The translations under genes and the position numbers were made by a program. A stretch of DNA of 64,000 nt from an uncultured Propionibacteriaceae bacterium. Its GTDB lineage: Bacteria; Actinomycetota; Actinomycetes; Propionibacteriales; Propionibacteriaceae. The notes below the pieces were generated by a model. That model had not been told where the DNA came from, did not search any database, and saw only the letters and a list, made by a program, of their open reading frames with translations. Location: assembly GCA_945911015.1 (NCBI GenBank), contig CAMDZW010000013.1, positions 1-64,000 of the forward strand. The letters are read 5' to 3'. This document shows positions 24,060-64,000 of this stretch, piece by piece. Position 1 is the stretch's first letter, and each line of letters opens with the position of its first letter.

Positions 24060-24095
24060 CGCTGACGCCTCCACTCCGGCCACACCCCCACTGCT

Positions 24096-24134
24096 TCCCA
24101 CATCGTGGGATACATTATTCCGCATTGCAGGAAT
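24096..24134. promoter_or_regulatory. Divergent promoter/operator region, FAD oxidoreductase / iclR
   Basis: Two separate inverted repeats sit in the divergent gap. One is TCCCAC-ATC-GTGGGA (24096-24110, perfect 6-3-6). The other is ATTCC-GCATTGCA-GGAAT (24117-24134), which resembles IclR-family operators (TTCC...GGAA). Between them, TACATT (plus) and TAATGT (minus) are candidate -10 boxes. The layout suggests one operator for the local IclR protein and a second for another regulator. Confidence 0.55.
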
Positions 24135-24150
24135 GTTAGAAGATCGCCCT

Positions 24151-27734: not shown

Positions 27735-29980
27735 CGGTTGTCCTTTCCGGTCGGGAGATGGTGGCTCAGCCGGATCAGCGTCTGAACCTGATCCGGGCTG
27801 AGGGTGTGGTCCTGTTGTGAAGTGATCATGGAACGGTAGGCCGCCAAGTGCTGGCCGGCTTCGTCGAGCTTGTTGACCCGCGTGGTGGCCGCAGCCTTGG
27901 TGAGCAACTGGCGAGCGCTGCGGGCAACGCCCTGCTGTGACGGGGCGCCGAAGTCCTGCAACTCGCTCACCGTCCGGTCGGTCAACGACCCGAAGTCCAC
28001 CAGCTCGATCTCGTAGTGGTGGACTGCCATCGGATCGTAGTCGTCGGAGAACGAACCGTCGGGCCCCACCGACACGGTACGGTCCTCGTCGCGGACAGAC
28101 ACCGAGAGCGCAGCCGGTACGGTGAAGGTTGCGGTCTGCGAATCCCGGGTGTGGTTGACCGTGAGGAGATATCCCTTCCCAGCATGGGATTTGAGAAGGG
28201 TGTTGAGCCAGTCCTCACTCGACAGGGTGGCTTCCGGGGCTGTGTCGATGGACAGCAACACCGGGATCAGACCGTGCACTTCCTCAGCCGTGGTGACGGC
28301 GATGTCCCACGCCTCCTCGACGGAGACGTCGGGCGCTTCCTGCTGCTGCAACCGGCTGAGCATGTAGTAGATCAGCCCACTGGTCCCCTCGCAGATGAAC
28401 TGCCAGGTCATGCTGCGGAATTCCGGTCCGGTGGGGAATCGCCCCACCCGGTTGTAGTGCTCCCACGAGAAGGCCTGAGGTACATGCCAGGCAGGACGGT
28501 TGGCCAGGGCCGCATTCTGTCCTCGGACCACCGTGGTGGGTTCGCCGACATCAGAGGTGTCGTCGTAGATCGGGTAGGAGGCGGCGCCGGACACATCCAG
28601 CATGCGCACATAGGCCCGTTGGTCGTCACGGGGCAGTTCGGCCAGGGCATGTTCCAAGTAGGCCGGATGATGGGGGTCGTGACTGGCGACGGCATCGTAG
28701 TGCACCTTGAGCCGTTCGTGGAGCAACGACTTGGGCTCGTCAGCCATGTACCAGGCCAGCATCGCCGGATGATCACCGAACCTTTCGACCCGGTCCAGGA
28801 TCGCGGGCACCTCATCGGCTTCGGTGACGATCTCTGCCGGCTTGTAGGCGCTGGCCGAGTCGTGGAAGAAGGCCATCAGTGGATAGATGACGTTGACCCC
28901 ATTGGCCTCAGCCAGGTCCAGCGCCGCCTTGGTGGGCGGGGCGTAGGGCAGGATCGTGTCGAACGGGGTGCCATTGATGGTCTCCAAGGCGTCGGCCAGC
29001 CCGCCGTGGTAGAGGCCGATCGGAAAGTAGGGCTCGCCGTCACGGATGAAGCGACCGTGCCGATCGAAATAGGTGGGAGGCGCGCTGGTCAGCTTCTCCA
29101 GACCCCACTCCTCGGCCTCGACGGTCTGCCCGGTCGCCTTGTTGATCAACTCAATGCGCAGGGTGTGCCTGCCGGCGGCGAGCCCGTCCGTCGAATAGCT
29201 GTAGTCGAGGGTCTCGGCAGCCTCAACTGTGGTCTGGTCGACCAGCTCATCGGCTGCGGTGAGCAAGGAAACGGTGACCTGGTGGGCGGACAGGTCCTCG
29301 GTCTCGACCGAGGATCGCAGCTCGATGGTGTCGTGGTCACCGGGAATCACCAGGCCCCGATAGGACGGGGTGTGCAGTTCGGTGTGCAACTGCCGCGGCT
29401 TGATCGCGCGCAGGGTCAGGTCATCGAACCAGGCTGTGCCGGCGTCCACCTCGCTGTAGAGGTACAGCTGGACGGCCAGCTCCTCGGTCCCTTCCGGGGG
29501 CGTGAACAACACCTGCGCCTGCACCCAGTCGTCCGAGCGGACGTCCAGGCTGTACGACCCTTTCAGCCATCCGGTGGCGCTGAAGGCGTCGAGCCCGACC
29601 TTGGCCCCGCGGATCGCCGGTCCCTCGAGGTCGACGGCTCGAACCCAGCACGTCAGTTCGTAGGCGACACCGGCTTCGGCCGGGATGATCATGGTGGCGG
29701 TCACGTAGCTGTCGCCGGCCGAGCGGTCATACCGCAGGCTGCGGTCGCCGGTGTGGGCGACGGTGTCGTCATAGATGGTCGGCCCTTCGAGCCAGTCGGC
29801 CTCATCGGTCTCGAAGGACGTCTGGTAGATGACATCGGTGCCGTCATCGGCCGAGGCCGGCAGAATCTGCCGTTGTCCCAGCAGTGGTGCGCGGGTGAAG
29901 GCCGACTCCGCTGAAACACCTATTCCGGCGGCCGTTCCGGCGGCCACGGAGCCCAGAAGGGCTCTGCGCGAGAGGGTCAT
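27731..29980 (-). CDS. Tat-exported glycoside hydrolase-like protein with N-terminal carbohydrate-binding-like domain
   Basis: 749 aa from ATG 29980. The N-terminus MTLSRRALLGSVAAGTAAGIGV is a Tat signal. Residues ~40-190 form a jelly-roll carbohydrate-binding-like module (YQTSFETDEADWLEGP...WFDDLTLRAI). Next comes an Ig-like segment, then a TIM-barrel-like region (YFPIGLYHGGL, ANGVNVIYPLMAFF, MLAWYMADEPKS with a candidate acid Glu, and QAFSWEHY). It looks like a glycoside hydrolase clan-A relative, but no GH family can be assigned by eye. First gene of the operon with SBP and lacI. Confidence 0.68.
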   Translation of the reverse strand: MTLSRRALLGSVAAGTAAGIGVSAESAFTRAPLLGQRQILPASADDGTDVIYQTSFETDEADWLEGPTIYDDTVAHTGDRSLRYDRSAGDSYVTATMIIPAEAGVAYELTCWVRAVDLEGPAIRGAKVGLDAFSATGWLKGSYSLDVRSDDWVQAQVLFTPPEGTEELAVQLYLYSEVDAGTAWFDDLTLRAIKPRQLHTELHTPSYRGLVIPGDHDTIELRSSVETEDLSAHQVTVSLLTAADELVDQTTVEAAETLDYSYSTDGLAAGRHTLRIELINKATGQTVEAEEWGLEKLTSAPPTYFDRHGRFIRDGEPYFPIGLYHGGLADALETINGTPFDTILPYAPPTKAALDLAEANGVNVIYPLMAFFHDSASAYKPAEIVTEADEVPAILDRVERFGDHPAMLAWYMADEPKSLLHERLKVHYDAVASHDPHHPAYLEHALAELPRDDQRAYVRMLDVSGAASYPIYDDTSDVGEPTTVVRGQNAALANRPAWHVPQAFSWEHYNRVGRFPTGPEFRSMTWQFICEGTSGLIYYMLSRLQQQEAPDVSVEEAWDIAVTTAEEVHGLIPVLLSIDTAPEATLSSEDWLNTLLKSHAGKGYLLTVNHTRDSQTATFTVPAALSVSVRDEDRTVSVGPDGSFSDDYDPMAVHHYEIELVDFGSLTDRTVSELQDFGAPSQQGVARSARQLLTKAAATTRVNKLDEAGQHLAAYRSMITSQQDHTLSPDQVQTLIRLSHHLPTGKDNR

Positions 29981-30058
29981 GATGCAACCTTTCCAACCTC
30001 GTTGTTTCTGAAGGTGAAGCCAGCCCAAGAACAGAATCGAACAGGTGATCCATGAGGG

Positions 30059-50958: not shown

Positions 50959-52326
50959 ATGACCTCAGAGCCGGTGGATGAGCTGGCGTCAGCGTTGCCC
51001 GACGGCGTGGTGGCGACTGACCCGGCCGTGATCGAGAAGTACCGCACGGACTGGTCCCGCAACACCGATGGCGTCATCCCGATCGCAGTGGTCCGGGTCA
51101 ACGACGCCGACCAGGTGCAGCAGGTGATGCGCTGGGCGACCCGGCACCAGATCGCGGTCGTTCCCCGTGGCGCCGGCACCGGTCTGTCCGGTGGTTCCAG
51201 CGGGATCAGCGGCGCAATCGTGTTGAGCATGGAGCGGATGACCGGTGTCGAGATCGACGTCGCGACCCGTACGGCGATCGTGGAGCCGGGAGCGCTCAAC
51301 ATCGATGTCAAGCGGGCCGCCGCCGAGCACGGCCTGTGGTACCCGCCGGACCCTTCCTCGTACGAGATCTGTTCCATTGGTGGCAATCTCGCCACCAATG
51401 CTGGCGGGCTGTGCTGTGTGAAGTACGGCGTGACCACCGACTATGTCCTCGGCCTCGACGTGGTCCTCGCCGACGGCACCCTGGTCACGCTCGGCGGACC
51501 GCGGATCAAGGACTCAGCCGGTCTGTCCCTGGTCAAGATGTTCGTTGGCAGCGAGGGCACCCTCGGCATCTTCACCCGTACGGTGTTGCGTCTGGTCCCT
51601 GCCCTACCGCCGGCGGCGACGATGGTGGCCACCTTCCGCTCGCCGGAGGATGCCACCCGCGCCGTGGTGGCAATCGGCGCCAAGCTGCGTCCGTCGATGT
51701 TGGAGTACATGGACCAGTTCAACATCCGGGCGGTGGAGAAGCTGCGACCGATGGGACTCGACACCGAGGCCGAGGCGATGCTGATCGCCCAGTCCGATGC
51801 CCCCGACGGCGCACGGACCACCGAGATCGCGTTGATGTCGACCCTCTGTCGGGAGGCTGGCGCCAAGGAAGTGCTGTCCACCGATGACCCGGACGAGGCG
51901 GAGATGTTCGTCGCAGCCCGACGGGCCTGCTTTCATGCGCTCGAGCCGTACGGGAAGATCATGTTCGAGGATGTCGGCGTCCCGATCCCGCAGCTGCCGG
52001 ACCTGGTGGCCGGCATCGAGGAGATCGCTCAGCGCCACGGTGTGCTGATCCCGGTCGTCGCGCACGCCGGCGACGGCAACACCCACCCCAATGTCATCCA
52101 CGACGGATCCGACCCTGATGCCGTACGCCGGGCCCAGTTGGCCTTCGACGAAGTGATGGACCTCGCGATCCGGCTCGGCGGGACCATCACCGGCGAACAT
52201 GGCGTCGGTCGCCTCAAGCGCAACAAACTCGCCGACCAGCTCGGTCCGGAGGCGATGGAACTGACCCGTCGCATCAAGACCGCCCTGGATCCGGACAACC
52301 TGCTGAACCCCGGATCCCTGATCTGA
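50959..52326 (+). CDS. FAD-linked oxidase, glycolate/D-lactate oxidase GlcD type
   Basis: 455 aa. The PCMH-type FAD domain contains VVPRGAGTGLSGGSSGISGAIVLSMERM (FAD pyrophosphate loop) and ICSIGGNLATNAGGLCCVKYGVTTDYVLGLDVVLADGTL. The C-terminal domain has VAHAGDGNTHPNVI and ITGEHGVGRLKR, characteristic of GlcD-like glycolate/D-lactate oxidising subunits. No GlcE/GlcF subunits follow. Instead an aminotransferase gene starts 30 bp downstream, so oxidation of glycolate to glyoxylate followed by transamination is plausible. Confidence 0.88.
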   Translation: MTSEPVDELASALPDGVVATDPAVIEKYRTDWSRNTDGVIPIAVVRVNDADQVQQVMRWATRHQIAVVPRGAGTGLSGGSSGISGAIVLSMERMTGVEIDVATRTAIVEPGALNIDVKRAAAEHGLWYPPDPSSYEICSIGGNLATNAGGLCCVKYGVTTDYVLGLDVVLADGTLVTLGGPRIKDSAGLSLVKMFVGSEGTLGIFTRTVLRLVPALPPAATMVATFRSPEDATRAVVAIGAKLRPSMLEYMDQFNIRAVEKLRPMGLDTEAEAMLIAQSDAPDGARTTEIALMSTLCREAGAKEVLSTDDPDEAEMFVAARRACFHALEPYGKIMFEDVGVPIPQLPDLVAGIEEIAQRHGVLIPVVAHAGDGNTHPNVIHDGSDPDAVRRAQLAFDEVMDLAIRLGGTITGEHGVGRLKRNKLADQLGPEAMELTRRIKTALDPDNLLNPGSLI

Positions 52327-52356
52327 TCCACCTGAGAGAGCAAGGAGCAATTCCCC

Positions 52357-53454
52357 ATGACCCGTCTGCCTGACCGTCACCTCTTCGGCCCCGGCCCGAG
52401 CAACCCGTACCCGTCGGCCACCCAGGCCCTGGCCGCGCCGCTGCTGGGGCATCTCGACCCGGCCTTTCTCGACATCATGGACTCGGCCTGTGACGGGCTG
52501 CGGGCGGTCTTCGGCACCGACAACCGCCGCACCCTGCCGCTGAGCGCGACCGGCTCGGCGGGCATGGAGGCGGCCTTCGTCAATCTGGTCCACCCCGGTG
52601 ATGTCGCCGTCATCGGCGTCAACGGCCTGTTCGGCGTCCGGATGGCCGAGGTCGCCCGCCGGTGTGGTGCGGAGGTGATCACCGTCGACCATGAGTGGGG
52701 CACTCCGATCGACGCCGAGCGCATCCAGGCGGCCCACCCGAATCCGCAGCTGATCGGCGTCGTCCATGCCGAGACGTCGACCGGGGTCCGCTCCGATCTG
52801 GCCGAGGTCGCCGCGGTGAAGGGGGATGCGATCCTGATCGCCGACACCGTGACCTCAATCGCCGGCATCGAGCTGCGCCTGGACGACTGGGGAGTCGACG
52901 TCGCGTACGCCGGCACCCAGAAGTGTCTGGGGGTCGCGCCCGGTCTGGCGCCGTTCTCCATCAACAACCGCGCCTTCGAGCGCAGGGTCATCGATCCCCG
53001 CTCCTGGTACTTGGACCTGGGTCTGCTCGGCGGCTACGTCGGCGAGGCCGCCAACTCCAAGCAGCGCACCTACCACCACACCGCCCCGACTGCGTTGGTC
53101 GCCAGCCTCGAGGCTGCTCTGGACACGATCCTGTCTGAGGGATTGGAACAGGTGTGGGCCCGTCACGGCGAGGCCGGTGCGATCCTCCAGGACGGGTTGC
53201 AGGAGATGGGCCTGGAGCTGTTCGCCGCCGAGAGATACCGTCTGCCGGAGCTGACCACGGTCAAGGTGCCGTCGGGTGTCGACTCGGCCGCCGTCCGCTC
53301 CTATCTGCTGAACCGGCACAACATCGAGATCGGCGCCGGGGCCGGCGAATTCGCCAGCACGGTGTGGCGGATCGGACTGATGGGGCACAACGCGCGTCCT
53401 GACCGCGCACTGTTGGTGCTGGCAGCGCTGAAGGACGCGCTGGCCAACGCCTGA
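52357..53454 (+). CDS. Class V aminotransferase (alanine/serine-glyoxylate type)
   Basis: 365 aa, PLP fold type I. The N-terminal HLFGPGPSNPYPSATQALAAPLLGHLDPAFLDIMD is typical of alanine-glyoxylate/serine-glyoxylate aminotransferases. The Schiff-base Lys lies in YAGTQKCLGVAPGLAP; the cofactor Asp is in LIADTVTSIAGI. The C-terminus is WRIGLMGHNARPDRALLVLAAL. It likely converts glyoxylate to glycine using alanine or serine. It shares a unit with the GlcD-type oxidase. Confidence 0.9.
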   Translation: MTRLPDRHLFGPGPSNPYPSATQALAAPLLGHLDPAFLDIMDSACDGLRAVFGTDNRRTLPLSATGSAGMEAAFVNLVHPGDVAVIGVNGLFGVRMAEVARRCGAEVITVDHEWGTPIDAERIQAAHPNPQLIGVVHAETSTGVRSDLAEVAAVKGDAILIADTVTSIAGIELRLDDWGVDVAYAGTQKCLGVAPGLAPFSINNRAFERRVIDPRSWYLDLGLLGGYVGEAANSKQRTYHHTAPTALVASLEAALDTILSEGLEQVWARHGEAGAILQDGLQEMGLELFAAERYRLPELTTVKVPSGVDSAAVRSYLLNRHNIEIGAGAGEFASTVWRIGLMGHNARPDRALLVLAALKDALANA

Positions 53455-53455
53455 G

Positions 53456-53611
53456 TCACGGCAGGCCGGATGTGCCGTAGAGCGACGAGTCCGCCTCAGC
53501 GGTCCGAGTTTCCTCCGACATCCGGCTTGCCGCCCGCCGACCGATCTCAAGGATCTGGGCCGTCTTCCGTACGGACTCGGGCGAGCGATCGCGCTTGGTG
53601 TTTCGCGTCAT
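53456..53611 (-). CDS. Possible small basic protein (51 aa)
   Basis: This short ORF is below the ORF-track limit. It reads from ATG 53611 with no rare composition: basic N-terminus TRNTKRDRSPESVRKTAQIL, then an amphipathic stretch EIGRRAASRMSEETRTAEAD. It occupies most of the 275-bp gap between the aminotransferase and SGNH genes. GGTGAGGA lies about 11 nt upstream, rather far for an SD. No family is recognised; it may be a real small protein or chance. The rest of the gap (53612-53729) holds two GTCCTCACCTT repeats. Confidence 0.35.
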   Translation of the reverse strand: MTRNTKRDRSPESVRKTAQILEIGRRAASRMSEETRTAEADSSLYGTSGLP

Positions 53612-53729
53612 GGGTACCACGTCCTCACCTTCTGATACTCATGGTGCCTGTCCGATCCGTGGGTGTCCTCACCTTTCTCCCGCATTGGTGATCGAATGTG
53701 CTTCGTCAATTCTTCGAGGAGGACCACCA

Positions 53730-54716
53730 GTGCAGGCATTCGATCCCGGAACCCATCCCGATCTCTGGCAGGGAGCAGTCCGCTGGACCCCGGTCGAGGA
53801 CGGTTGGCAGGGGTGGCGGCTGCTGCCCGAGGAAGAGCAGTTCGCCTATGCCGAAGCGCTCTACCAAAGTGCCCGCTCTGCGGCCGGGATCCGCTTCGTC
53901 GCCGATGTGACCGCCGACTGGATCGAGGTCGAGATCACCGCTCTGGGCGATCCGGCCAAGCCTGTCGACATCCTGGTTGACGGCGAGCTGGCGACCCGGG
54001 AGATCGCGGCGGGACGTGTCACCGTACGGCAGGAGCTCACCGAGGGCAGCCACCGCGTCGAGATCTGGCTCCCCCACGCCGGCCCCACCGTGGTCCACGC
54101 CGCCCGCGTTGCCGACGGCGCAACGGTCACTGCGATCGCGCCACGGACCCGCTGGCTCACCTACGGCAGCTCGATCACCCAGGCCAGCGGTGCCGACGGC
54201 CCTTCACTCACCTGGCCCTCGATCGCGGCCCGCACTCTGGACTGGGACCTGACCTGCCTCGGCTTCGGCGGCCAGTGCCACCTCGACCAGGCGGCCCTGG
54301 CCACCATCGCCGCCACTGAGGTCGACGTCATCTCGCTGTGCCTGGGCATCAACATCCAGGGCAACGGCTCCTTCAACGAACGTTCCCTGCCGGGCCAGTT
54401 GTCGGCCTTCGTCCGGGGAGTCCGGGCTGCGCACCCCGACATCCCGATCCTGGTCATCTCGCCAATCATCTCCACCGGCCGCGAGGAGACCCCGAACATG
54501 GCCGGGCTGAGCCTGTCCCGGATCCGTGCCATGGTCACCCAGATCACCACGGACCTGCAGGACGCTGGCGACACCGCTCTCCATCTGGTGAACGGGTTGG
54601 AGGTCTTCGGGGATCAGGATCTTGCCCTGCTCCCCGATGACCTCCACCCGAACAGTGACGGTTACGGCGTCATGGGTGAGCGACTCACCCCACATCTGGC
54701 CAAGCTCATCGCCTGA
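53730..54716 (+). CDS. SGNH/GDSL hydrolase (probable carbohydrate esterase)
   Basis: 328 aa from GTG 53730 (GAGGAGGA 6 nt upstream). An N-terminal beta-sandwich of ~130 residues precedes the SGNH fold. Block I is WLTYGSSITQASG with the nucleophile Ser in GSSIT; the block III-like region is CLGINIQGNGS; the catalytic Asp and His are in LPDDLHPNSDGYG. No signal peptide, so it acts on internalised oligosaccharides or small esters. Converging on the lyase-like gene (11-bp overlap) at the edge of the polysaccharide locus, it probably removes acetyl groups. Confidence 0.83.
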   Translation: MQAFDPGTHPDLWQGAVRWTPVEDGWQGWRLLPEEEQFAYAEALYQSARSAAGIRFVADVTADWIEVEITALGDPAKPVDILVDGELATREIAAGRVTVRQELTEGSHRVEIWLPHAGPTVVHAARVADGATVTAIAPRTRWLTYGSSITQASGADGPSLTWPSIAARTLDWDLTCLGFGGQCHLDQAALATIAATEVDVISLCLGINIQGNGSFNERSLPGQLSAFVRGVRAAHPDIPILVISPIISTGREETPNMAGLSLSRIRAMVTQITTDLQDAGDTALHLVNGLEVFGDQDLALLPDDLHPNSDGYGVMGERLTPHLAKLIA

Positions 54717-57543
54717 TCTCGGCGTGATGGGTGCGTCCGTCGCGGTCGCTGGTGTCGATCTCGACCACCATCGTTGCGCCGGAGCGGGTGTGGCTGACCG
54801 TTTCATCGGCTCGGCCCACCCGCTGCACCCCACCCAGCAACAGCTCGAGACGGATCAGGTCCCGACGACCGGTCGGATCGGAGACCGCCAGCTTCGCCGT
54901 ACCGTCCTCAGAGCGCAGTGCGACCGCGCAGGGACCGTCAGCAGTGACCCGCCGCACCGAACCGGCAGCGAAGAAGTTCGCCAAGGTCACTGCGCCGGAG
55001 TCACCGCTGATGGCCTGCACCGAAGCGGTGTTGGCCACGATCGAAACCCCCGGGTCACCAGCAGCGGCCTCGGTCTGGGCTGAGGTAGCGGTGGGGAGCA
55101 CCAGGTACGCATAGCTGGAGTCGAGCTCGACCGGTGTGTGACCGACCTCGCTGATCCGGACCGCGTCGGCCTTGGGATGACCACTGCCGTCAATGTCCAT
55201 CCGGATCTCAGCCCGGCCCGCCGCGAATTCGTACTCCCCCAACACCTGCCACTGTCCGGCACCGGTCCGCTGGTCGAGGACCACGACATCCTCGCCATCG
55301 GCATGCGAAACGGTGTACGGGGCGCTGGGAGCGTTGTTGGCGGCGGCAGGAAACCAGACGGCCACCTCGTACCGCCCCGCAGTTTCGACCTCAGGACGCC
55401 AGATCACCCAACTGTCGCCGGCATGGTTCGGGCTCCCACCCAGCACCGTCCCGCCGGCATATCCGGGATAGCGAGGGGTTTCGGTCCAGATCCCGACCTG
55501 GCTGAAATCAGGTTCACCGGAGTTGGTGTCGACCACTCCCTGGTGAGGATTGTCGGCCCGGCCGTGGTCCAGTGACAGTGTCAACCACTGCCGAGTCACC
55601 GCATCGGTGCTGCCGTCATCGTCGACCTGGCGCCAAGTGCCGGTCCGGCTCGTGGTCGCCGCGCGCAGGGACACCCGGTCGTCCAGCAGGACATACCCAG
55701 CGACCGATTCCAGATGTGCCCAGGAACCGGGTCCGAAGTCCTCGACCCACTCGGTCTCGGTGGACCAGGCCGTCCCGTTGACCGTCAGCACACCGCCGCC
55801 ATCGCTGTGGAGGTTGCGATCCTCGATGGTGGTGACAATCGGTTCGCCGCTGCCGCCGGTGATGCCGGCACCCAGCGCCACGATCCGATCCGGCAGGCAG
55901 AACCATGACTGACGTGCGGTCATGGTGGATCCGACGCCGTGCAGATCCTGACCGAAGGTCCCGGTGCCGTCATCCAACGCAACTCCGCCCGCCCAAGTAT
56001 TGGGAGCCAGGGTGCGCCCTGCGCTGCCGCCACCCGAGCCAGGGGCCAGTTCCTGGGTGTCGACGGTGGTACCGGGCAGCCCGTACAAGTTGGCAGTCGG
56101 CCAATACCCGTCGGTGAACTGGGTCGGATCTGCTGCCGTGTGGAGCTGCATCCATCCGGCCGCAGTGTGGAAGCCGCGATAGTTCTCACCGAGTTGGTAG
56201 TCATAGACAGCAACACGGTCGCTCGCACCAGCAATCATGCACGCCCAGCCCGCACCTCGGTGCACCGCTCTGGCCATCGAGGGGAAGATCGCGAAACCGA
56301 CTCCTTCGTCTGCCGGTGTGACCGAGGGGTCGTCAAGCAGTTCCTTCACCAAGGAGATTCGACTCAGGGAGGCGCCGGCGAAGATACTGAGGACTGTGTT
56401 GCGCTCCAGCCAACCGGCACACACCGCTCGCCACCGCGCTGCCGTGGACGGTTCTGCGGCTGGCGCCAGCCGCAGGACTGCTTCGATCAAAGAGTTCCCC
56501 GACGCGTACGAGGAAGCTCCGGCCCGGGCGATCGCACGGCCCCGAACCGCATCCATCACGGCTCCGCCGAAGACAACCGGGATGAACGCCCGATCGACGG
56601 CGTCGATGATCCGATCGACACGCGGATCGGTGATCTGCCAAGGCGTCTCGGCGAGCACACCCAACAGGCGAGTCAGCCCAGTCATCATGTCGATGCCGTA
56701 GGAACCGGTGTAGGGCACCTGTCCCTGGTAGAGGAACGATCCGTCGGGGTAGAGCCCGGGCGGAGAGTCACGTTCGGTGGCGTAGGCGAAGGCGGCACCC
56801 AGACGGTCAGCCGCCAGGGCGATGTGATCCTCGGACTCGCCGAGCATGCCGATCAGGAAGGTATTGCGGCACAGGTCGACCCGGTTGGTGGCCGACGACT
56901 CGTGATCGGTCCGATTCGGGTAGCGCTCGAACTGCCAGGCCGGGTCACCGACGAACCAGTCAAGAGCAGCCACATAGCGATCCAGGTCAGCCGCAGGGAC
57001 CAGACCATCGAGCAGGACCAGCACGTCAGCCAGGTTGACCGCGCCACCGATCTCCCAGTGCCACCAGTTGTCGAACTCGTCGGCGCCGGCGTGGTAGATC
57101 AGGTCCTCGGTGGTGGCGAGTCCGTCGAGGATCTCGGTGAGCAGCTGGTCGTCGCCGAAGCTGTCGGTGGGTGGCAACCGGTGGGCGATGGCCATCTGAC
57201 GCAGCCGGTCATACGTGGTGTAGATGCTCGCCGACGTGGTGAAAGGAACGTCGGTGAACACCCGGTCCCGGCCTGGACCGGTGACCAGCTTCGCCCGCGC
57301 CATCGCCGCAGCCGTCTCCGCATGGGCCACTCCGGCGGCGATGGAGGGATCATCGATGTCGAAGATGGTGCCGAGCAGCAGGTCACGGTATCGCCCCCGC
57401 AGCACAGCGAAGGCGTCAGTTGGCTCGGCGGCGCCGGCGGACACGGCAGAGAACGGGACAACTGCCGCCCCGGCGACGATGGAGCCCGAGGCGAGCAGCG
57501 TCCGGCGGCTGATGGCCGACCTCGTTGTCGATCTGGTGGACAT
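54706..57543 (-). CDS. Polysaccharide lyase family 8-like protein, Tat-exported, catalytic His replaced by Gln
   Basis: 945 aa. Tat signal: AISRRTLLASGSIVAGAAVV. The alpha/alpha toroid of PL8 is clear: DNWWHWEIGGAVNLADVLVLL, TNRVDLCRNTFL (catalytic Asn, N220) and YPDGSFLYQGQVPYTGSYG. In PL8 lyases the last block reads DGSxxxH...YTGxYG; here the His position is Gln (Q273, CAG at 56725-56727) while Tyr (Y282) is kept. The beta-sandwich domains follow, with an inserted golvesin/xanthan-lyase-CBD-like module (SWVIWRPEVETAGRYEVAVW). Family substrates are hyaluronan, chondroitin and xanthan. Whether it is an active lyase is open. Confidence 0.85.
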   Translation of the reverse strand: MSTRSTTRSAISRRTLLASGSIVAGAAVVPFSAVSAGAAEPTDAFAVLRGRYRDLLLGTIFDIDDPSIAAGVAHAETAAAMARAKLVTGPGRDRVFTDVPFTTSASIYTTYDRLRQMAIAHRLPPTDSFGDDQLLTEILDGLATTEDLIYHAGADEFDNWWHWEIGGAVNLADVLVLLDGLVPAADLDRYVAALDWFVGDPAWQFERYPNRTDHESSATNRVDLCRNTFLIGMLGESEDHIALAADRLGAAFAYATERDSPPGLYPDGSFLYQGQVPYTGSYGIDMMTGLTRLLGVLAETPWQITDPRVDRIIDAVDRAFIPVVFGGAVMDAVRGRAIARAGASSYASGNSLIEAVLRLAPAAEPSTAARWRAVCAGWLERNTVLSIFAGASLSRISLVKELLDDPSVTPADEGVGFAIFPSMARAVHRGAGWACMIAGASDRVAVYDYQLGENYRGFHTAAGWMQLHTAADPTQFTDGYWPTANLYGLPGTTVDTQELAPGSGGGSAGRTLAPNTWAGGVALDDGTGTFGQDLHGVGSTMTARQSWFCLPDRIVALGAGITGGSGEPIVTTIEDRNLHSDGGGVLTVNGTAWSTETEWVEDFGPGSWAHLESVAGYVLLDDRVSLRAATTSRTGTWRQVDDDGSTDAVTRQWLTLSLDHGRADNPHQGVVDTNSGEPDFSQVGIWTETPRYPGYAGGTVLGGSPNHAGDSWVIWRPEVETAGRYEVAVWFPAAANNAPSAPYTVSHADGEDVVVLDQRTGAGQWQVLGEYEFAAGRAEIRMDIDGSGHPKADAVRISEVGHTPVELDSSYAYLVLPTATSAQTEAAAGDPGVSIVANTASVQAISGDSGAVTLANFFAAGSVRRVTADGPCAVALRSEDGTAKLAVSDPTGRRDLIRLELLLGGVQRVGRADETVSHTRSGATMVVEIDTSDRDGRTHHAEIRR

Positions 57544-57548
57544 GTCGA

Positions 57549-58268
57549 TCAGCTCTCCTGCTCGGGGGTCGGAATCTGGAGCTCATCGAAGGCGGCGCGG
57601 AAAGCGGTGACGGCCTCGGAGAGCGACTCGACCGTCATCCCGGTCACATAGGCGCCGATCATGACGGCCCACACCTGGGGGATGTCGAACAGCCGCGGCA
57701 CATCGGACGGCACCAGCTGGCGCACCGACGGGACGATCAGCCGACGCTCGCTGATCCTGCCGGTCTCCCGCAACGCATAGAGATCCTGTACGACCAGAGG
57801 CTTGCGGTGTCCCTCGAGCGGGACTCCGCTGGCCTCCATCCAATCGCCAGGCGCATCCCGCAGGGCGCGCACCCCGTGCAGGTAGTTCGCGGTGCCGAAG
57901 GCCCCGCCTCCCGAGGGGACGAACGGGACCTCGGGGTCGGCCATGAAGGCGGGTGCAGCAGCGAAGTCTGCGTTCACGAAGCAGATCCCCATGGCCAGGG
58001 CGCGGTCGAGTTCGTCCTTGGTGATCATCGCGTCGGAGGCGCCGGGCACCAGGCCGACCGGGGCACCGAGGGCGATGATCTTCTCGAACTCGGCAACATT
58101 GTCGTCAAAGGTGCCGAACTCGTGGCCGGACATGTGGCGCAGGTTCAGATGGACCTTCACCACATCGGCGCCCGCGTCGAGGGCGACCTTTGCGAACTCG
58201 ACGTCGTTGACCGGGAGGCTGACGACGAGTTGGCCTCTGCGGTCGGACAGTGGTGTTGCGGGTGACAT
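57549..58268 (-). CDS. TIM-barrel protein of unknown function in the polysaccharide locus
   Basis: 239 aa from ATG 58268 (GAAAGGA upstream). It begins LVVSLPVNDVEFAKVALDAGADVVKVHLNLRHMSGHEFG, a beta/alpha-barrel pattern like NanE or HisA-type sugar-phosphate epimerases, but without a recognisable signature of either. VGLVPGASDAMITKDELDRAL, CFVNADFAAAPAFM and VWAVMIGAYVTGMTVESLSEAV are further barrel strands. It lies between the FAD oxidoreductase and the lyase, 5 bp from the latter's start. By position it may isomerise or cleave the oxidised sugar product. No function is claimed. Confidence 0.7.
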   Translation of the reverse strand: MSPATPLSDRRGQLVVSLPVNDVEFAKVALDAGADVVKVHLNLRHMSGHEFGTFDDNVAEFEKIIALGAPVGLVPGASDAMITKDELDRALAMGICFVNADFAAAPAFMADPEVPFVPSGGGAFGTANYLHGVRALRDAPGDWMEASGVPLEGHRKPLVVQDLYALRETGRISERRLIVPSVRQLVPSDVPRLFDIPQVWAVMIGAYVTGMTVESLSEAVTAFRAAFDELQIPTPEQES

Positions 58269-58330
58269 CGTGGATGTCCTTTCGTTGGGTGGTTGGGACG
58301 AGGGTGCTTGACTGCGCACGAGTTGATGGC

Positions 58331-59947
58331 TCACCAGGGCTGCACCCTGGGCCAGTTGAGGTCGACCCCTTCGAGCCTGAGGCGGCGTTGGTACTGCGCC
58401 AGGTGGTCGGCGTCAGCACTCAACTGGTGCGGTTCGAGCCTGTGGTCCAGACAGTGGGTCGCCGCGACCCCGGCCGCCTCACCGACCGACCACTCGACCG
58501 GGTGCAGCCGATAGCACCCGTTCGTGATGTGGGTGGTGCCGATGGTCTTGCCTGCGGCCAGGAGGTTGCGAACCCGAACCGGGACGAGTGCCCGGTACGG
58601 GATCTGGAACGGATGAGCCGGGACGTCGATGTAGTTGTCCCCGCCGGTCGAGGGATGCAGGTCGATCCGGTAGGCGCCGGTGCCGACGGTGTCGGGGTAG
58701 GTCAGGGCACCGGACGGCCGCTCGGCCACGGCCACATCGGCCGCGGTGATCGTGTACTGGGCACGGATCCGACGGGACTCGCGGATGTAGACCCGTTTGG
58801 CGAACCCGTCCTCGGTGCCCATCACGTCCGGCCGCAGACGCAGCCCTTGGTAGCCGGTGCCACCGTCGGGACGTGGTGCTTCGGTCTGCAACCAGTACAG
58901 GAATGCTCGGCTCATCGCCTTCGCCCCGGCAGTATGTCGTGCGTCGTCGTGAGGGGCCCCGCCAAGCACCGGACCGTCGAGGTAGTCGATCATCGGCCAG
59001 TTCACCAACGTGACGTCGCTGGCTCCGTATGGGCTGGTCGGGTCGTAGTGGTTGCGGGCCAGGACTCGACGGAACCGCCACAGGTCGTCGGCACCGGAGT
59101 CCTCACTCTGGTCGGCAATGATCCGATCGGGACGGTCGTCGGGATTCGGCACCATCGTGTGGCGCCGCGGCGCGAGCGTGTGCGGGTGGGGAACGACCCA
59201 TCCGAACTGACGGCCCGGCCAGTAGGAAGGCTGTCGGGATCGCCAGTCGTCGTAGTCGGCGGGTCGATCGATCGTGTGATCCTCACCGGCACGGTGCTCG
59301 ACGGCGAAGCACCAGGAGGCGGCCTGCATGTTCATCGGCTGGGCCACCTCGGGTGCATCGGCCTCCCCGGTCTCGTTGCGTGACTCGAAACCGGTGACAT
59401 GTTCGACTCCGGCAGCACTGATCAGCTCCCCGGTCTCACTGGCATCGAGGACCAGCCGTGCGATGACCGTGACGGCCTCACCGGTACTGGCCTCCTGGAA
59501 GACGACCGTGTCGATCCGATCACCGGACACCGAGGCGCTGACAGTGGCATGTTCCAGCAGGACCTGCAGCTGGCCACTGGCTTCGTACGGCCGGAGGATC
59601 TCGTCCATCACGTGTGCCGAGACGACGGGTTCGTGGCACAGCGCCGACACCAGCCCGGCGCCGGGGTTCACATAGGGCAGACGAGCGGATCGGGCCCGCA
59701 AGGGCCGGTGGTCGCGATACCACTGCCGAATCCTGCTGCGCAGCTGGCGATAGCGGTAGCTCGATCCGAAGTGCTCGATCCATGGATGCTCGTCCGGAGG
59801 GACGCCCTGGGAAGTGGCCTGTCCACCGAGCCAGTCCGACTCCTCGGTGAGGACAACCCGATGACCTGCCGAGGCCACGGCCCAGGCTGCTGCCACTCCG
59901 CCCAGGCCACCTCCGACAATCAAGACGTCTGTTTCAAGGTCGCGCAT
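58331..59947 (-). CDS. FAD-dependent oxidoreductase (PF12831 FAD_oxidored type)
   Basis: 538 aa from ATG 59947 (AAAGGA 4 nt upstream). The FAD site is VLIVGGGLGGVAAAWAVASAGHRVVLTEESDWLGGQATSQGV. A conserved block follows (LVLDASETGELISAAGVEHVTGFES). The late block is LLAAGKTIGTTHITNGCYRLHPVEWSVGEAAGVAA. This is the same broad family as the protein at 21732, but without the discoidin-like C-terminus. Located between the ABC permeases and the TIM-barrel gene, it probably oxidises a sugar released from the polysaccharide. The electron acceptor is unknown. Confidence 0.82.
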   Translation of the reverse strand: MRDLETDVLIVGGGLGGVAAAWAVASAGHRVVLTEESDWLGGQATSQGVPPDEHPWIEHFGSSYRYRQLRSRIRQWYRDHRPLRARSARLPYVNPGAGLVSALCHEPVVSAHVMDEILRPYEASGQLQVLLEHATVSASVSGDRIDTVVFQEASTGEAVTVIARLVLDASETGELISAAGVEHVTGFESRNETGEADAPEVAQPMNMQAASWCFAVEHRAGEDHTIDRPADYDDWRSRQPSYWPGRQFGWVVPHPHTLAPRRHTMVPNPDDRPDRIIADQSEDSGADDLWRFRRVLARNHYDPTSPYGASDVTLVNWPMIDYLDGPVLGGAPHDDARHTAGAKAMSRAFLYWLQTEAPRPDGGTGYQGLRLRPDVMGTEDGFAKRVYIRESRRIRAQYTITAADVAVAERPSGALTYPDTVGTGAYRIDLHPSTGGDNYIDVPAHPFQIPYRALVPVRVRNLLAAGKTIGTTHITNGCYRLHPVEWSVGEAAGVAATHCLDHRLEPHQLSADADHLAQYQRRLRLEGVDLNWPRVQPW

Positions 59948-59969
59948 TTTTCCTTTCACGGTTGGAGAA

Positions 59970-60818
59970 TCATCCCTTCAATCCGGTGCTGCTGAGGCCT
60001 TCGACGAACTGCCGCTGGGCAAAGACGAAGACCACCAGGACCGGGATCACCGCGAGTGCGGTGGCTCCGAGTTGGGTGTTAAACAAGGGCTCTCCGTACA
60101 TGTCGTCGTAGCGGGTGATCCCCAAGGAGACTGGGAACAGTTCCGGGGTCCGCAGCAGCACCAGAGGTTCGAGGTAGAGATTGAACGACCGAAGGAAGGT
60201 CATGATGGCCACCGCACCGATGGCAGGGCCGGCCAGAGGAAAGGCGATCCGCCAGAAGATCCCCCAGCGACCGAGGCCGTCCACCCGTGCCGCATCCTCC
60301 AGTTCGCCCGGCAGGGACAGGAAGAACTGGCGGAAGATGAATACCGCGACCACGCTTCCCGGTCCCAGCATCGGCAGAATGATCAACGGCAGGTGGTTGT
60401 CCAGCAGACCAAGCTGAGACACCCAACGGAAGACCGGGATGATGGTGATTTCGGAGGGCACCAACATCGCCGACACCAGCATCAGGAAGAACAGATTCGC
60501 TCCCCAGAAACGGATCCTGGCGAAGGCATAACCGGCCATCGCGCCGAGGACGACCACACCGACGGTGACGACGGTGGCGATGTAGAGCGAGTTCAACCAC
60601 TGCCGCGCATACGGGTTGACGGTGAAGATCTGCTTCACGCCATCCAGTGTCCATTGCTGGGGCCACAGGCTGGGGCTGAGCGACATCAGCTCATCGTTGG
60701 TCTTGAACGGCGCGAAGAGCATCCACACCATCGGATAGATGAAGGGCACGCAAGCCAGCGCGAGGAGCAGGTAGAGCACGATCCTGCTCGAGCGACGACG
60801 ACTCCGATCAGACCTCAT
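59970..60818 (-). CDS. Carbohydrate ABC transporter permease (MalG/UgpE type)
   Basis: 282 aa, six hydrophobic helices. The EAA motif, which contacts the ATPase, is LPGELEDAARVDGLGRWGIFWRIAFPLAGPA. N-terminus: IVLYLLLALACVPFIYPMVWMLFAPFKTNDEL. It overlaps the MalF-type gene by 11 bp. No ATPase gene is in this operon; the MsmK-like gene at 43256 is the likely partner. Confidence 0.92.
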   Translation of the reverse strand: MRSDRSRRRSSRIVLYLLLALACVPFIYPMVWMLFAPFKTNDELMSLSPSLWPQQWTLDGVKQIFTVNPYARQWLNSLYIATVVTVGVVVLGAMAGYAFARIRFWGANLFFLMLVSAMLVPSEITIIPVFRWVSQLGLLDNHLPLIILPMLGPGSVVAVFIFRQFFLSLPGELEDAARVDGLGRWGIFWRIAFPLAGPAIGAVAIMTFLRSFNLYLEPLVLLRTPELFPVSLGITRYDDMYGEPLFNTQLGATALAVIPVLVVFVFAQRQFVEGLSSTGLKG

Positions 60819-61686
60819 CGTGGACCCACTTCCTCCGGGCCACCCATTGGATGGCGGTGAGTCCCAGCACCAGAACGAACATCATCACGCCCAAGGCACT
60901 TCCGTACCCGAACTCAAGGTCCTGGAAGGTGGTCCGGTACACCAGATAGGGCAACACGGTGGTCGTGCCCTCGGGCCCGCCCTGGGTGAGGACCATGACC
61001 GGCACGAAGGTGTCCAGACCGCCGATCATCGTCAGGATCATCACCAGCAGGATGGTCGGTGTCATCAACGGCAGGATGACGTGTTGCCAGACCCGCCTCC
61101 GGCTTGCGCCGTCGAGGGCAGCGGCTTCCTTCAGTTCGTTCGGGATCCCTTGCAAGGCGGCAAGGAAGAGGATCATGTTCATCCCGACTCCTTTGATCAC
61201 CTGCACCACGACCACGGTCGGCAGTGCCGTGCGGCGATCCATCAACCAATTGGGTCCGTCGATGCCGATGGCGGCCAGGACGGCATTGATGCCGCCGTTG
61301 GCTGCCAGCAGGTACGACCAGACCACCACCCAGGCAACGCTGGACACCACGACCGGGGCGAAGTAGATGACGCGGAAGGCGGTGATGCCCTTCAGCCCCG
61401 TGTTGAGCAGATTGGCCAACAGCATCGCCAACGGGATGTTGAGCACCATGAGCAGGCCGGCGAAGCCGAGGGTGGCCCCCACACTGGTGGGGATCTGAGG
61501 GTCGGTGAACATCCGGAGGTAGTTGGCAACACCGGAGAAGTCGAAGGTGCCGGCCAAGGGGTTCCACTCATGGAGGCTGTACCACACGACCATCAGGAAG
61601 GGCACCAGGCCGAAGGCACCGATGCCGAGCACCATGGGCGCCGCCATTGCTGCGCCGGTGAACTTGTCGATGGTCGTCGATTTCAC
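60808..61686 (-). CDS. Sugar ABC transporter permease (MalF/UgpA type)
   Basis: 292 aa from GTG 61686, which overlaps the binding-protein stop (GTGA); the track start at 61758 lies inside that gene. Six helices are visible, with PMVLGIGAFGLVPFLMVVWYSLHEWNP at the N-terminus and the EAA motif IPNELKEAAALDGASRRRVWQHVILPLMTPT. It forms the import channel with the MalG-type permease, and is coupled to both neighbours. Confidence 0.92.
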   Translation of the reverse strand: MKSTTIDKFTGAAMAAPMVLGIGAFGLVPFLMVVWYSLHEWNPLAGTFDFSGVANYLRMFTDPQIPTSVGATLGFAGLLMVLNIPLAMLLANLLNTGLKGITAFRVIYFAPVVVSSVAWVVVWSYLLAANGGINAVLAAIGIDGPNWLMDRRTALPTVVVVQVIKGVGMNMILFLAALQGIPNELKEAAALDGASRRRVWQHVILPLMTPTILLVMILTMIGGLDTFVPVMVLTQGGPEGTTTVLPYLVYRTTFQDLEFGYGSALGVMMFVLVLGLTAIQWVARRKWVHDEV

Positions 61687-62996
61687 TCCAGATCCGCCTC
61701 GATGTCGGCGCAGGCCTTTTCCATCAGTGCGGCGAGATCGGCATTGGGGCTGGGCCAATAGGCGTCGAGATGAACCTTGACCTTGTCAGTGATCCGGCTG
61801 AGGTTCTTGTGGCCCTGTTTGGTGGTGCCCCGGCTGGCCTGGTCGATGATCGTCCCGCTGATCATCTCGTCGGTCAGCAGGGGGCTGACCTGCTTGAGGT
61901 TCTCGACCGTGAGCAGTGAGGTGCGCGGTTGGGGGAAGAACTGCGACAACTTCGCGCCCGACTCGGGGTTGGTGAACCAGGCAAGGAAGTGCTTGGCGGC
62001 CTCGATCTTGCTCGACTGCGACAGCACTCCGATCCCGGACTGACCCACGATCGGGTGGGCACCGGCTGGCCCCTCGGGCAAGGGCAGGAAGTCCCAGTCG
62101 AATCCGGCCTCGGAGATGAGCCGAGATCCGCTGAGCAGGCCGATCTTGAATCCGGTCTGGCCGGAGTTCATGTCGAAGACCTCACCCGGCTTGGCGTGAG
62201 CACCGGTCTGGTGGATCTGCTCGTGGAACCAGCCGAAGAAGTCGAGCATCGGCTGTGAGGTCAACTGACAATCGGTGCCGTCCTCGGTCCACGGCCGCGC
62301 GCCCCACTGCGGCCACATCGTGCCGAGACCGTCGAGCCAGCCGTCGAAGGGATCGACACCGGCCTGGAAGCCGGTCAGTCCGGAGTCACTGGCCGCGACC
62401 TGGGCGGCGCTCTCGGCCAACCGGCCCCAGGTCCACTCCCCGTTGTCGAGGAGCTCCCGCGGAGCGGGTCCACCGGCGGCCTTGATCAGGTCGAGATTCG
62501 CGTAGATCCCGAACGGGCTGTTCGAGAACGGGTAGGCGAAGACCTTGTCGTCCTGCTGCCACACCCGGAGTGCTTCGGCGACGACGTCGTCGAACGCGTA
62601 CCCCTCAGCCTGCTTCAGGGTGTCGGTGACATCGACGAATGCGCCACCGTCGACGAACTGGCGAGCATTGGCCTCGAAGACCCACGCCAGGTCCGGCGAC
62701 TGACCGCCGGCGATCTGGGTCTGCAGGGCCGTGATGTAGGCGTCGGCGGGCAGCGTGTCGAAGACGACCTTGTTGACCCGATCGGAATGCGCAGCGACAT
62801 AGGCGACGCCGATGCTGTTGAGCACCTCGAGGTGGCCTTCGTTCGAGCTGAAGATGGCCACCCGCAGCTCGACCGGCCCGGAACCGTCCTCCTGGGGCGG
62901 TGCCGGATCATTGGAACAGGCAGCCAGGCCGATCCCTGAGGTTGCAGCCAAGCTGGCCAGGCCCAGGGCCTGCAGTACTGCACGGCGTTGTGTCAT
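61683..62996 (-). CDS. Sugar ABC transporter substrate-binding lipoprotein
   Basis: 437 aa from ATG 62996 (GGAG 6 nt upstream). Signal peptide TQRRAVLQALGLASLAATSGIGLAAC contains a Tat-like RR pair and the lipobox LAAC. The family 1 solute-binding fold is seen in QTQIAGGQSPDLAWVFEANARQFVDGGAFVDVTDTLK and in PIVGQSGIGVLSQSSKIEAAKHFLAWFTNPE. First gene of the polysaccharide operon SBP-malF-malG-FAD oxidoreductase-TIM barrel-lyase. The ligand is presumably an oligosaccharide cut from the target polymer. Confidence 0.92.
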   Translation of the reverse strand: MTQRRAVLQALGLASLAATSGIGLAACSNDPAPPQEDGSGPVELRVAIFSSNEGHLEVLNSIGVAYVAAHSDRVNKVVFDTLPADAYITALQTQIAGGQSPDLAWVFEANARQFVDGGAFVDVTDTLKQAEGYAFDDVVAEALRVWQQDDKVFAYPFSNSPFGIYANLDLIKAAGGPAPRELLDNGEWTWGRLAESAAQVAASDSGLTGFQAGVDPFDGWLDGLGTMWPQWGARPWTEDGTDCQLTSQPMLDFFGWFHEQIHQTGAHAKPGEVFDMNSGQTGFKIGLLSGSRLISEAGFDWDFLPLPEGPAGAHPIVGQSGIGVLSQSSKIEAAKHFLAWFTNPESGAKLSQFFPQPRTSLLTVENLKQVSPLLTDEMISGTIIDQASRGTTKQGHKNLSRITDKVKVHLDAYWPSPNADLAALMEKACADIEADLE

Positions 62997-63147
62997 GTCG
63001 TTCTCCATCCAGTCAGGAATCGTGTTGGCGTCATCCTTGTCCGACGAGAACAGCCGCCACAAGCCCCTGATAGGAATAACCTCATGACCCATATTGGCTG
63101 TTGTTCAGCGGGATAGTTATGGTTATGCAAATGACTTGGAGATCATC
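62997..63147. promoter_or_regulatory. Divergent promoter region of the polysaccharide locus
   Basis: AT-richer than its surroundings. ATAACC (63078-63083) and GGTTAT (63120-63125) form a distant inverted pair, and GTTATGGTTATG is a short direct repeat, all candidates for LacI operator elements. TTGTTC could serve as -35 for lacI. Individual boxes are uncertain. Confidence 0.35.
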
Positions 63148-64000
63148 ATGAATCAGCGACGGCGCCCCACCCAGTCCGACGTGGCCAAGGCAGCCCGGGT
63201 GAGCCAGGCCACGGTCTCGCTCGTGCTGAGCGGTAGTCCACATCCACGCACACGGGTGTCGGACGAGAGCCGTCAGCGCGTGCTGGACGCCGCTGAACAG
63301 CTCGGCTATGCGCCCAACGCGCTGGCCCAAGGGATGGTCCGCGGACGCAGCCGCGTGATGGGGGTGTTCACCTACGAACCGGTGTTTCCTCGTGACGGCA
63401 GCAACTTCTACCACCCGTTCCTGGTCGGAATGGAGGCGGCGGCAGAGCAGATCGCGGTTGATCTGCTGTTGTTCACCTCGGCACCACTGGTCGGGAAGCG
63501 ACGGCGACTGGTCGACACCGGGTGGAATCGGGTCCAGATTGCCGACGGCTGCGTCCTGATCGGCCGACTCGGTGATGCCGATGAGGTGGCCACCCTGTCC
63601 GAACAGCGCTATCCGTTTGTCCACATCGGCCGTCGGGAAGGGTCGCAGCAGCTGCCGATCCCCCATGTCGGCGCTGACTACGTCGCCGCGACCGCGGCCG
63701 TGGTCGAGCGACTCCACGGCCTGGGGCACCGCAGGATCGCCTTCCTCGGCGACCTGGGCGGTGCGGTCTCGGCCCTTGACCGGCTCAACGGCTACCGCAC
63801 GGCGATCGAGCGGCACGGGATGCGGCCGATCATGCTGGATGCGGCTGCCTTCAGTCCCGGCGAGACCATCGAGGTGCTCACCACGAACGGGGCGACCGCG
63901 GTGCTGTTGAGCACCGTGACGATCTCTCCGCAGGAGTTGGCCGATGCGGCCACCCATGCCGGTCGGACGGTGCCGACCGATCTGTCGATCGCCGTGCTGG
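63148..64000 (+). CDS. LacI family transcriptional regulator (3' truncated by the window end)
   Basis: 284 residues are visible with no stop, which is why the ORF track omits it. The HTH is RPTQSDVAKAARVSQATVSLVLSG with the hinge YAPNALAQGMVRGRSRV. The effector domain includes GVFTYEPVFPRDGSNFYHPFLVG, nearly the same motif as in the LacI protein at 25002. It is divergent from the SBP operon and most likely represses it until the transported sugar or a metabolite binds. Confidence 0.93.
   Translation, partial: MNQRRRPTQSDVAKAARVSQATVSLVLSGSPHPRTRVSDESRQRVLDAAEQLGYAPNALAQGMVRGRSRVMGVFTYEPVFPRDGSNFYHPFLVGMEAAAEQIAVDLLLFTSAPLVGKRRRLVDTGWNRVQIADGCVLIGRLGDADEVATLSEQRYPFVHIGRREGSQQLPIPHVGADYVAATAAVVERLHGLGHRRIAFLGDLGGAVSALDRLNGYRTAIERHGMRPIMLDAAAFSPGETIEVLTTNGATAVLLSTVTISPQELADAATHAGRTVPTDLSIAVL

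What the first reader, a model, noticed from the sequence alone, without database searches (positions are those of the whole stretch)
53730..64000. Candidate undescribed oxidative polysaccharide utilisation system
One locus combines a LacI regulator, a complete sugar importer lacking its own ATPase, a PF12831 FAD oxidoreductase, an unassigned TIM-barrel protein, a Tat-exported PL8-like protein without catalytic His, and an intracellular SGNH esterase. There are no glycoside hydrolases, kinases or uronate-pathway genes. This suggests imported oligosaccharides are opened by oxidation rather than hydrolysis. The combination does not match a named PUL type known to me.
Basis: inference. Interest (0 to 1): 0.7.

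Follow-up and report, generated by a model that had tools for sequence, protein, structure and literature searches.

The report
Undescribed sugar import-and-oxidise gene module
A block of bacterial genes that imports a sugar and hands it to an uncharacterised flavin enzyme recurs, nearly unchanged, in distant bacteria, and here it is joined to an odd polysaccharide lyase and an unassigned enzyme, so it is a real but biochemically unsolved way of using carbohydrates.

Summary
Window 54706-63092(-) is a tight run of genes: solute-binding protein, two permeases, PF12831 flavoenzyme, a barrel-like protein without any family match, and a Tat-exported PL8 lyase whose catalytic His is Gln. A divergent LacI gene runs past the window end; an SGNH esterase lies convergent. 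Comparison changes the picture. LacI + CUT1 importer + this flavoenzyme (47-61% identical) is a portable cassette in Actinomycetota, Alphaproteobacteria and Deinococcota; in four lineages no other enzyme is visible beside it. Around it, companion enzymes are exchangeable (PL8, pectate-lyase-like, GH43-like, an unknown Tat family), and so are downstream enzymes (barrel protein, NanE+ROK kinase, DHDPS family, oxoprolinase-like). The barrel family is rare; where its flank is complete it always sits beside the flavoenzyme, in three separate flavoenzyme clades. The host genome carries 14 full-length PF12831 copies and five PL8 genes, three sharing the His-to-Gln change. The flavoenzyme has no full-length PDB relative. 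A FAD oxidoreductase is annotated beside PL8, LacI and a sugar importer in a published xanthan-induced plasmid region, not compared here. Best reading: an import-and-oxidise catabolic module. 'Opened by oxidation instead of hydrolysis' remains unproven; substrate unknown.

The parts
63148..64000 (+). LacI-family regulator (continues beyond the window; open frame to C13:64182)
   Evidence: PF00356 4e-14, PF13377 7e-10; adjacent to the cassette in most relatives; L122; start by RBS
63009..63147 (.). shared divergent promoter/operator region between SBP and LacI; no clear long palindrome found
61683..63008 (-). sugar-binding lipoprotein (SBP_bac_1), likely start 63008 or 62996
   Evidence: PF01547 2.8e-20; nearest solved: arabino-oligosaccharide-binding protein, 2.5e-9
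60808..61686 (-). CUT1 permease 1 (ORF from 61758; likely start 61686)
   Evidence: PF00528 2.4e-15, UgpA/MalF-like
59970..60818 (-). CUT1 permease 2
   Evidence: PF00528 6.8e-16, UgpE/MalG-like
58331..59947 (-). PF12831 flavoenzyme, core of the module (ORF from 59959)
   Evidence: PF12831 7e-101; 53-61% identical relatives; AF2 pLDDT 92.2, no full-length PDB match
57549..58268 (-). unassigned (beta/alpha)-barrel-like protein (ORF from 58334)
   Evidence: no Pfam/NCBIfam/PDB hit; homologues beside the same flavoenzyme family; conserved K60-x-H62, E167-x-S169, P202-S-Q, G227-x-x-V230-x-G232 in ORF numbering
54706..57543 (-). Tat-exported PL8 protein with inserted Golvesin domain; catalytic His replaced by Gln
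   Evidence: PF08124, PF02278, PF02884, PF25275; alignment to ArthroAC and to genome paralogues
53730..54716 (+). SGNH/GDSL esterase without a recognised signal peptide, convergent to the operon; associated, not co-transcribed
   Evidence: PF14606/PF13472; SsfX3-like by sequence, 2.5e-26; 45-46% relatives in FAD loci L011, L013, L015

Best explanation
The locus is one copy of a widespread, so far undescribed carbohydrate module: a LacI-type regulator controls a CUT1 ABC importer and a cytosolic PF12831 flavoenzyme that oxidises the imported sugar or sugar acid. Each bacterium fits this core with its own companion (mostly secreted) enzyme and its own follow-on enzyme. Here the secreted part is a His-less PL8-family lyase, and the follow-on part is an unassigned barrel enzyme that probably acts on the oxidised product (aldolase- or epimerase-like; its beta-8 motif resembles a phosphate site). 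Proposed order: the PL8 protein binds or cuts a uronic-acid polysaccharide outside; binding protein and permeases import the fragment using a shared ATPase; SGNH removes acyl groups; the flavoenzyme abstracts a hydride from a ring carbon or the anomeric carbon; the barrel protein processes the keto or lactone product; LacI senses the imported or oxidised sugar. Shown: gene content, tight gene order, recurrence across phyla, linkage of barrel and flavoenzyme. Inferred: every substrate, every reaction and the regulation.
For: LacI next to the flavoenzyme in 49 of 80 best relatives, with the CUT1 permease pair and SBP in 28, all of which also have LacI. Self-contained cassettes with no other enzyme visible beside them: Agrobacterium L087, Thalassospira L088, Deinococcus L089, Meiothermus L090. 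Companion families beside the CUT1-type cassettes change from locus to locus: Tat family c15, GH43-like c10, pectate-lyase-like c37, PL8 or DUF4127 in 21 of 28. Barrel protein beside the flavoenzyme in every locus with a complete flank, in three separate flavoenzyme clades, more clustered than 500 of 500 label shuffles. SBP-perm-perm-FAD-barrel-PL8 lie on one strand with short gaps or overlaps. Six further PF12831 copies in the genome sit beside LacI and/or SBP genes, one with a heparinase-like protein. A FAD-dependent oxidoreductase is annotated beside two permeases, SBP, LacI and PL8 in a plasmid region whose proteins are strongly enriched on xanthan (PMC12772297).
Against: No reaction of this flavoenzyme subfamily was found described. 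PL8 is present only in some loci, so the substrate must differ between loci or be a common sub-unit. The PL8 lacks the catalytic His and might not be a lyase. The published xanthan FAD protein could not be aligned to ours and its own abundance is not stated in the text read. In some lineages the partners are hydrolases, kinases or oxoprolinase-like proteins, so the flavoenzyme's role may vary. 'No other enzyme' in the minimal cassettes rests on gene tables that are known to be incomplete and on about 8 kb each side.
Confidence: 0.55

Rival explanations
1. An ordinary lyase-type utilisation locus: PL8 makes unsaturated oligosaccharides, they are imported and cut by glycosidases encoded elsewhere in the genome, and the flavoenzyme only oxidises a released monosaccharide.
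For: Genome has five PL8 genes, heparinase II/III-like proteins and a sulfatase; related loci carry MGH1/GH63-like hydrolases or ROK kinase + NanE.
Against: Only one weak partial GH88/GH105-type match and no KduI in the genome; minimal cassettes show no hydrolase nearby.
Confidence: 0.25
2. The flavoenzyme works redox-neutrally: transient oxidation next to a glycosidic bond, elimination or hydrolysis, then return of the hydride, so it is a flavin-dependent glycosidase.
For: Would explain a one-enzyme cassette without hydrolase; catalytic half without a PDB relative.
Against: No direct evidence; no precedent with FAD in the papers searched.
Confidence: 0.1
3. The PL8 protein is not a lyase but a binding or scavenging protein, and the module imports and modifies a small glycoside or sugar acid.
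For: His replaced by Gln and E407 by Asp; a Golvesin-type, carbohydrate-binding-like domain is inserted.
Against: Three paralogues 62-65% identical keep the same changes together with Asn, Tyr and Arg, which looks like conserved function and not decay.
Confidence: 0.1

Closest known systems
Xanthan utilisation region of Paenarthrobacter ilicis 6C (PMC12772297)
   Same: PL8, LacI, two permeases, SBP and an annotated FAD-dependent oxidoreductase in one region; region proteins strongly enriched on xanthan
   Different: Has GH9, GH38, GH3, ManA and a kinase; PL8 is called a xanthan lyase; no barrel protein described; homology of its FAD protein to ours not tested
Gram-positive polysaccharide utilisation loci (LacI + ABC importer + CAZyme)
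   Same: Regulator, importer, secreted polysaccharide-active protein, esterase
   Different: Core cytosolic enzyme is a PF12831 flavoenzyme plus an unassigned barrel protein, not glycoside hydrolases
Arthrobacter aurescens chondroitin AC lyase, PL8 (1RW9)
   Same: Aligned over residues 40-662, E=1e-135; Asn, Tyr, Arg kept
   Different: His233 to Gln, Glu407 to Asp, Golvesin domain insert
N-acylmannosamine-6-P 2-epimerase (NanE)
   Same: Weak profile similarity (hhalign probability 82%) and a comparable place at the end of some cassettes
   Different: No NanE family hit by HMM, different conserved residues
Stepwise 3-keto-glycoside pathways (recalled, not tested by function)
   Same: A redox step applied to an imported glycoside would be the analogy
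   Different: Those use GMC or Gfo/Idh/MocA oxidoreductases; none is in this locus

Membership tests
PF12831 FAD_oxidored | Family profile over whole length and glycine-rich FAD motif | tested here: met
   7.2e-101, residues 11-523; glycine motif conserved in 59 aligned relatives
PF12831 FAD_oxidored | Solved or biochemically defined relative of this clade | tested here: not met
   PDB by sequence only hits the Rossmann part; by fold best TMq among those listed 0.36
PL8 lyase | N-terminal alpha-helical, super-sandwich and C-terminal domains | tested here: met
PL8 lyase | Catalytic His (ArthroAC H233) | tested here: not met
   Gln in the window and in two paralogues
PL8 lyase | Catalytic Tyr, Arg and Asn | tested here: met
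   Y282, R336, N220
PL8 lyase | Beta-elimination activity | not testable with these tools
   needs purified enzyme
CUT1 sugar ABC importer | SBP and two MalF/MalG-type permeases | tested here: met
CUT1 sugar ABC importer | Dedicated ATPase in the locus | tested here: not met
   none in the window stretch; present as UgpC in rhizobial relatives
NanE epimerase | Family profile match | tested here: not met
   No Pfam hit; only a sub-threshold PdxJ hit in NCBIfam; only weak profile-profile similarity
Known xanthan locus | GH9/GH38/GH3 set with PL8 | tested here: not met
   not among the ten window proteins scanned, 50959-64000
Canonical GAG/hyaluronan locus | Unsaturated glucuronyl hydrolase (GH88/GH105) | tested here: not met
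   none in the locus; one partial, weak match elsewhere in the genome

The most novel reading that the evidence does not exclude
A cross-phylum catabolic strategy in which an imported uronate oligosaccharide is processed by a flavin enzyme whose catalytic half has no solved relative, followed by a new barrel-enzyme family, so that no glycosidase is needed for the unsaturated product of a His-less PL8 lyase subfamily.
Probability: 0.15. Interest if true: 0.85.

Novelty: new variant of a known kind. Interest (0 to 1): 0.58.

Why it matters
PF12831 proteins recur in carbohydrate loci, yet I found no paper that assigns one of this clade a substrate. A minimal cassette with one enzyme beside one importer makes the question directly testable: the importer's ligand is the enzyme's substrate or close to it. 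The module also points to new enzyme families (the barrel protein, the Tat family c15, a His-less PL8 subfamily) and to candidate polysaccharide conversions.

Tried and rejected
Barrel search in genome contigs with one sequence found nothing; 148 relatives and 397 phylum genomes had only the window copy with a single-sequence query; distant copies appeared with plasmid tblastn and then a profile. Single-sequence AF2 of the barrel protein was poor (pLDDT 44) and was not used as evidence. Early apparent PL8-FAD linkage in some fifteen loci turned out in most of them to be the Golvesin domain alone; only L058, L077 and L083 hold true PL8 catalytic domains. LacI operator: no convincing palindrome. 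PDB relatives of the binding protein do not settle the substrate. Literature searches for PF12831, DUF4127, flavin glycosidases and FAD + lyase loci gave nothing decisive.

Full report
Observation. On the minus strand, from 63008 down to 54706, lie a binding lipoprotein, two CUT1 permeases, a PF12831 flavoenzyme, an unassigned protein and a Tat-exported PL8 protein. Gaps are short or overlapping: the permeases overlap, the flavoenzyme starts 10-22 bases after permease 2, and PL8 starts five bases after the unassigned protein's stop. LacI is divergent and its frame runs past the window to C13:64182. SGNH (start 53730, good ribosome-binding site) is convergent, tail to tail with PL8, so it is not part of the transcript.

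PL8. The protein aligns to chondroitin AC lyase over residues 40-662 (E=1e-135) and holds an extra Golvesin-type domain before the C-terminal domain. H233 of ArthroAC is Q273; E407 is D448; N183, Y242 and R296 are kept. The genome has four more PL8 genes on other contigs. Two of them (C46 and C30, 62-65% identical to the window copy) share both replacements, so this looks like a conserved subfamily and not one decayed gene. The copies on C11 and C1 keep the His. Lyase activity remains open.

Flavoenzyme. It matches PF12831 end to end. Solved proteins match only its Rossmann part by sequence. An AlphaFold2 model from 59 window- and locus-derived sequences is good (pLDDT 92.2, pTM 0.94), and Foldseek against the PDB finds no full-length match; the best listed TM-score by query length is 0.36 and the listed alignments have rmsd of about 6-20 A. 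So the substrate half has no solved relative in that library.

The module. LacI lies within 1.5 kb in 49, and in 28 of these the LacI-FAD-SBP-permease-permease set is found. In many of the others LacI heads a longer operon with an Opp-type importer, an MGH1/GH63-like hydrolase, a DHDPS-family protein and a BNR-Golvesin protein. A further group has an oxoprolinase-like protein and a putative transporter. Plasmid records extend the cassette to Alphaproteobacteria and Deinococcota; in Parabacteroides the flavoenzyme follows SusC/SusD-type genes. In L087-L090 nothing else enzymatic is annotated beside importer, regulator and flavoenzyme. These tables are incomplete and cover about 8 kb each side, but four lineages agree.

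Companions. In the 28 CUT1-type loci, 21 carry one or more of five companion families near the cassette: Tat family c15 without Pfam match (9), GH43-like c10 (4), DUF4127 (4), pectate-lyase-like c37 (3), PL8 (2). The two PL8 cases (L058, L083) and L077 keep the His. DUF4127 is not shown to be secreted in general. ROK kinase and NanE follow the cassette in L048 and L050 and occur near the flavoenzyme in Mesobacillus L091. These partners argue for sugars, partly amino sugars, as substrates, and against the idea that hydrolases and kinases are never involved.

Barrel protein. It has no family match. Profile searches give only sub-threshold hits, mostly to TIM-barrel proteins (IMPDH, DHPS, DHDPS, PdxJ, IDI-2), and hhalign pairs it weakly with NanE (probability 82%). 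Conserved residues are K60-x-H62, E167-x-S169, P202-S-Q and a beta-8 G-x-x-V-x-G, numbered on the long open frame. It is rare: 3 of 298 genomes of an alphaproteobacterial order and 3 of 297 of an actinomycete class. It is always next to the flavoenzyme where the flank is complete (window, L002-L009, L106, L108, L110; L107 ends at a contig edge but shows the ATPase). On the flavoenzyme tree the label needs four changes against a shuffled mean of 11.4 (0 of 500 shuffles as low) and lies in three separate clades, with one loss in L087. The genomes of five other cassette- or flavoenzyme-bearing loci (L018, L026, L037, L048, L077) lack it.

Host genome. It carries 14 full-length PF12831 genes, against 0-4 in the listed genomes of the same family and at most 9 among the listed relatives (a limited number of candidates was scored there, so those counts may be lower bounds). 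Six further copies sit with LacI and/or SBP genes; neighbours of PF12831 copies include heparinase II/III-like proteins (L121, L129), a GH20C-C-terminal-domain protein and a Golvesin protein (L122). Only one weak partial GH88/105-type match and no KduI was found. That fits, but does not prove, an alternative route for unsaturated uronates.

Literature. The closest published context is the Paenarthrobacter ilicis 6C xanthan region: PL8, LacI, two permeases, SBP and an annotated FAD-dependent oxidoreductase, with proteins of the region strongly enriched on xanthan (PMC12772297). I could not align that protein, and the text read does not state its own abundance. No paper found assigns a reaction to this clade.

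Verdict. The locus is real and the module recurs, is portable and appears undescribed; its chemistry is inferred. I place it as a new variant of a known kind (LacI-ABC carbohydrate locus) with uncharacterised enzymes at its centre.

Noticed in passing
window 21735-26090: A second PF12831 gene (857 aa frame, 30% identical) with its own adjacent LacI gene; neighbours at 26106-30028 have no Pfam match.
   Followed up: partly
L122 (C13:60000-79900), just beyond the window end: Another LacI-SBP-FAD module with a GH20C-C-terminal-domain protein and a 1546-aa Golvesin protein, separated from the finding by a cysteinyl-tRNA synthetase and an rRNA methylase gene.
   Followed up: partly
host genome, 14 places: Unusual expansion of PF12831 flavoenzymes in a 3.7 Mb genome.
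   Followed up: partly
L137:8400-11231(-), L138:8115-11045(+): Two further PL8 proteins with the same His-to-Gln and Glu-to-Asp changes; the one in L137 stands among housekeeping-like genes.
   Followed up: yes
L026:6877-8733(-) and eight other loci (cluster c15): Tat-exported family of about 620-650 aa (some frames longer) without Pfam match beside LacI-FAD-ABC cassettes; candidate new depolymerase family.
   Followed up: no
L007, L009, L048, L050, L073, L110: DUF4127 (PF13552) cluster recurs beside the flavoenzyme, in some loci with the barrel protein and in others with NanE + ROK kinase; absent from the host genome.
   Followed up: partly
window 16046-18091(-): FAD_binding_2 protein (682 aa), another flavoprotein in the window.
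   Followed up: no
window 50959-53454(+): GlcD-like FAD oxidase and class V aminotransferase directly upstream of the SGNH gene, same strand; SGNH may belong with them.
   Followed up: no
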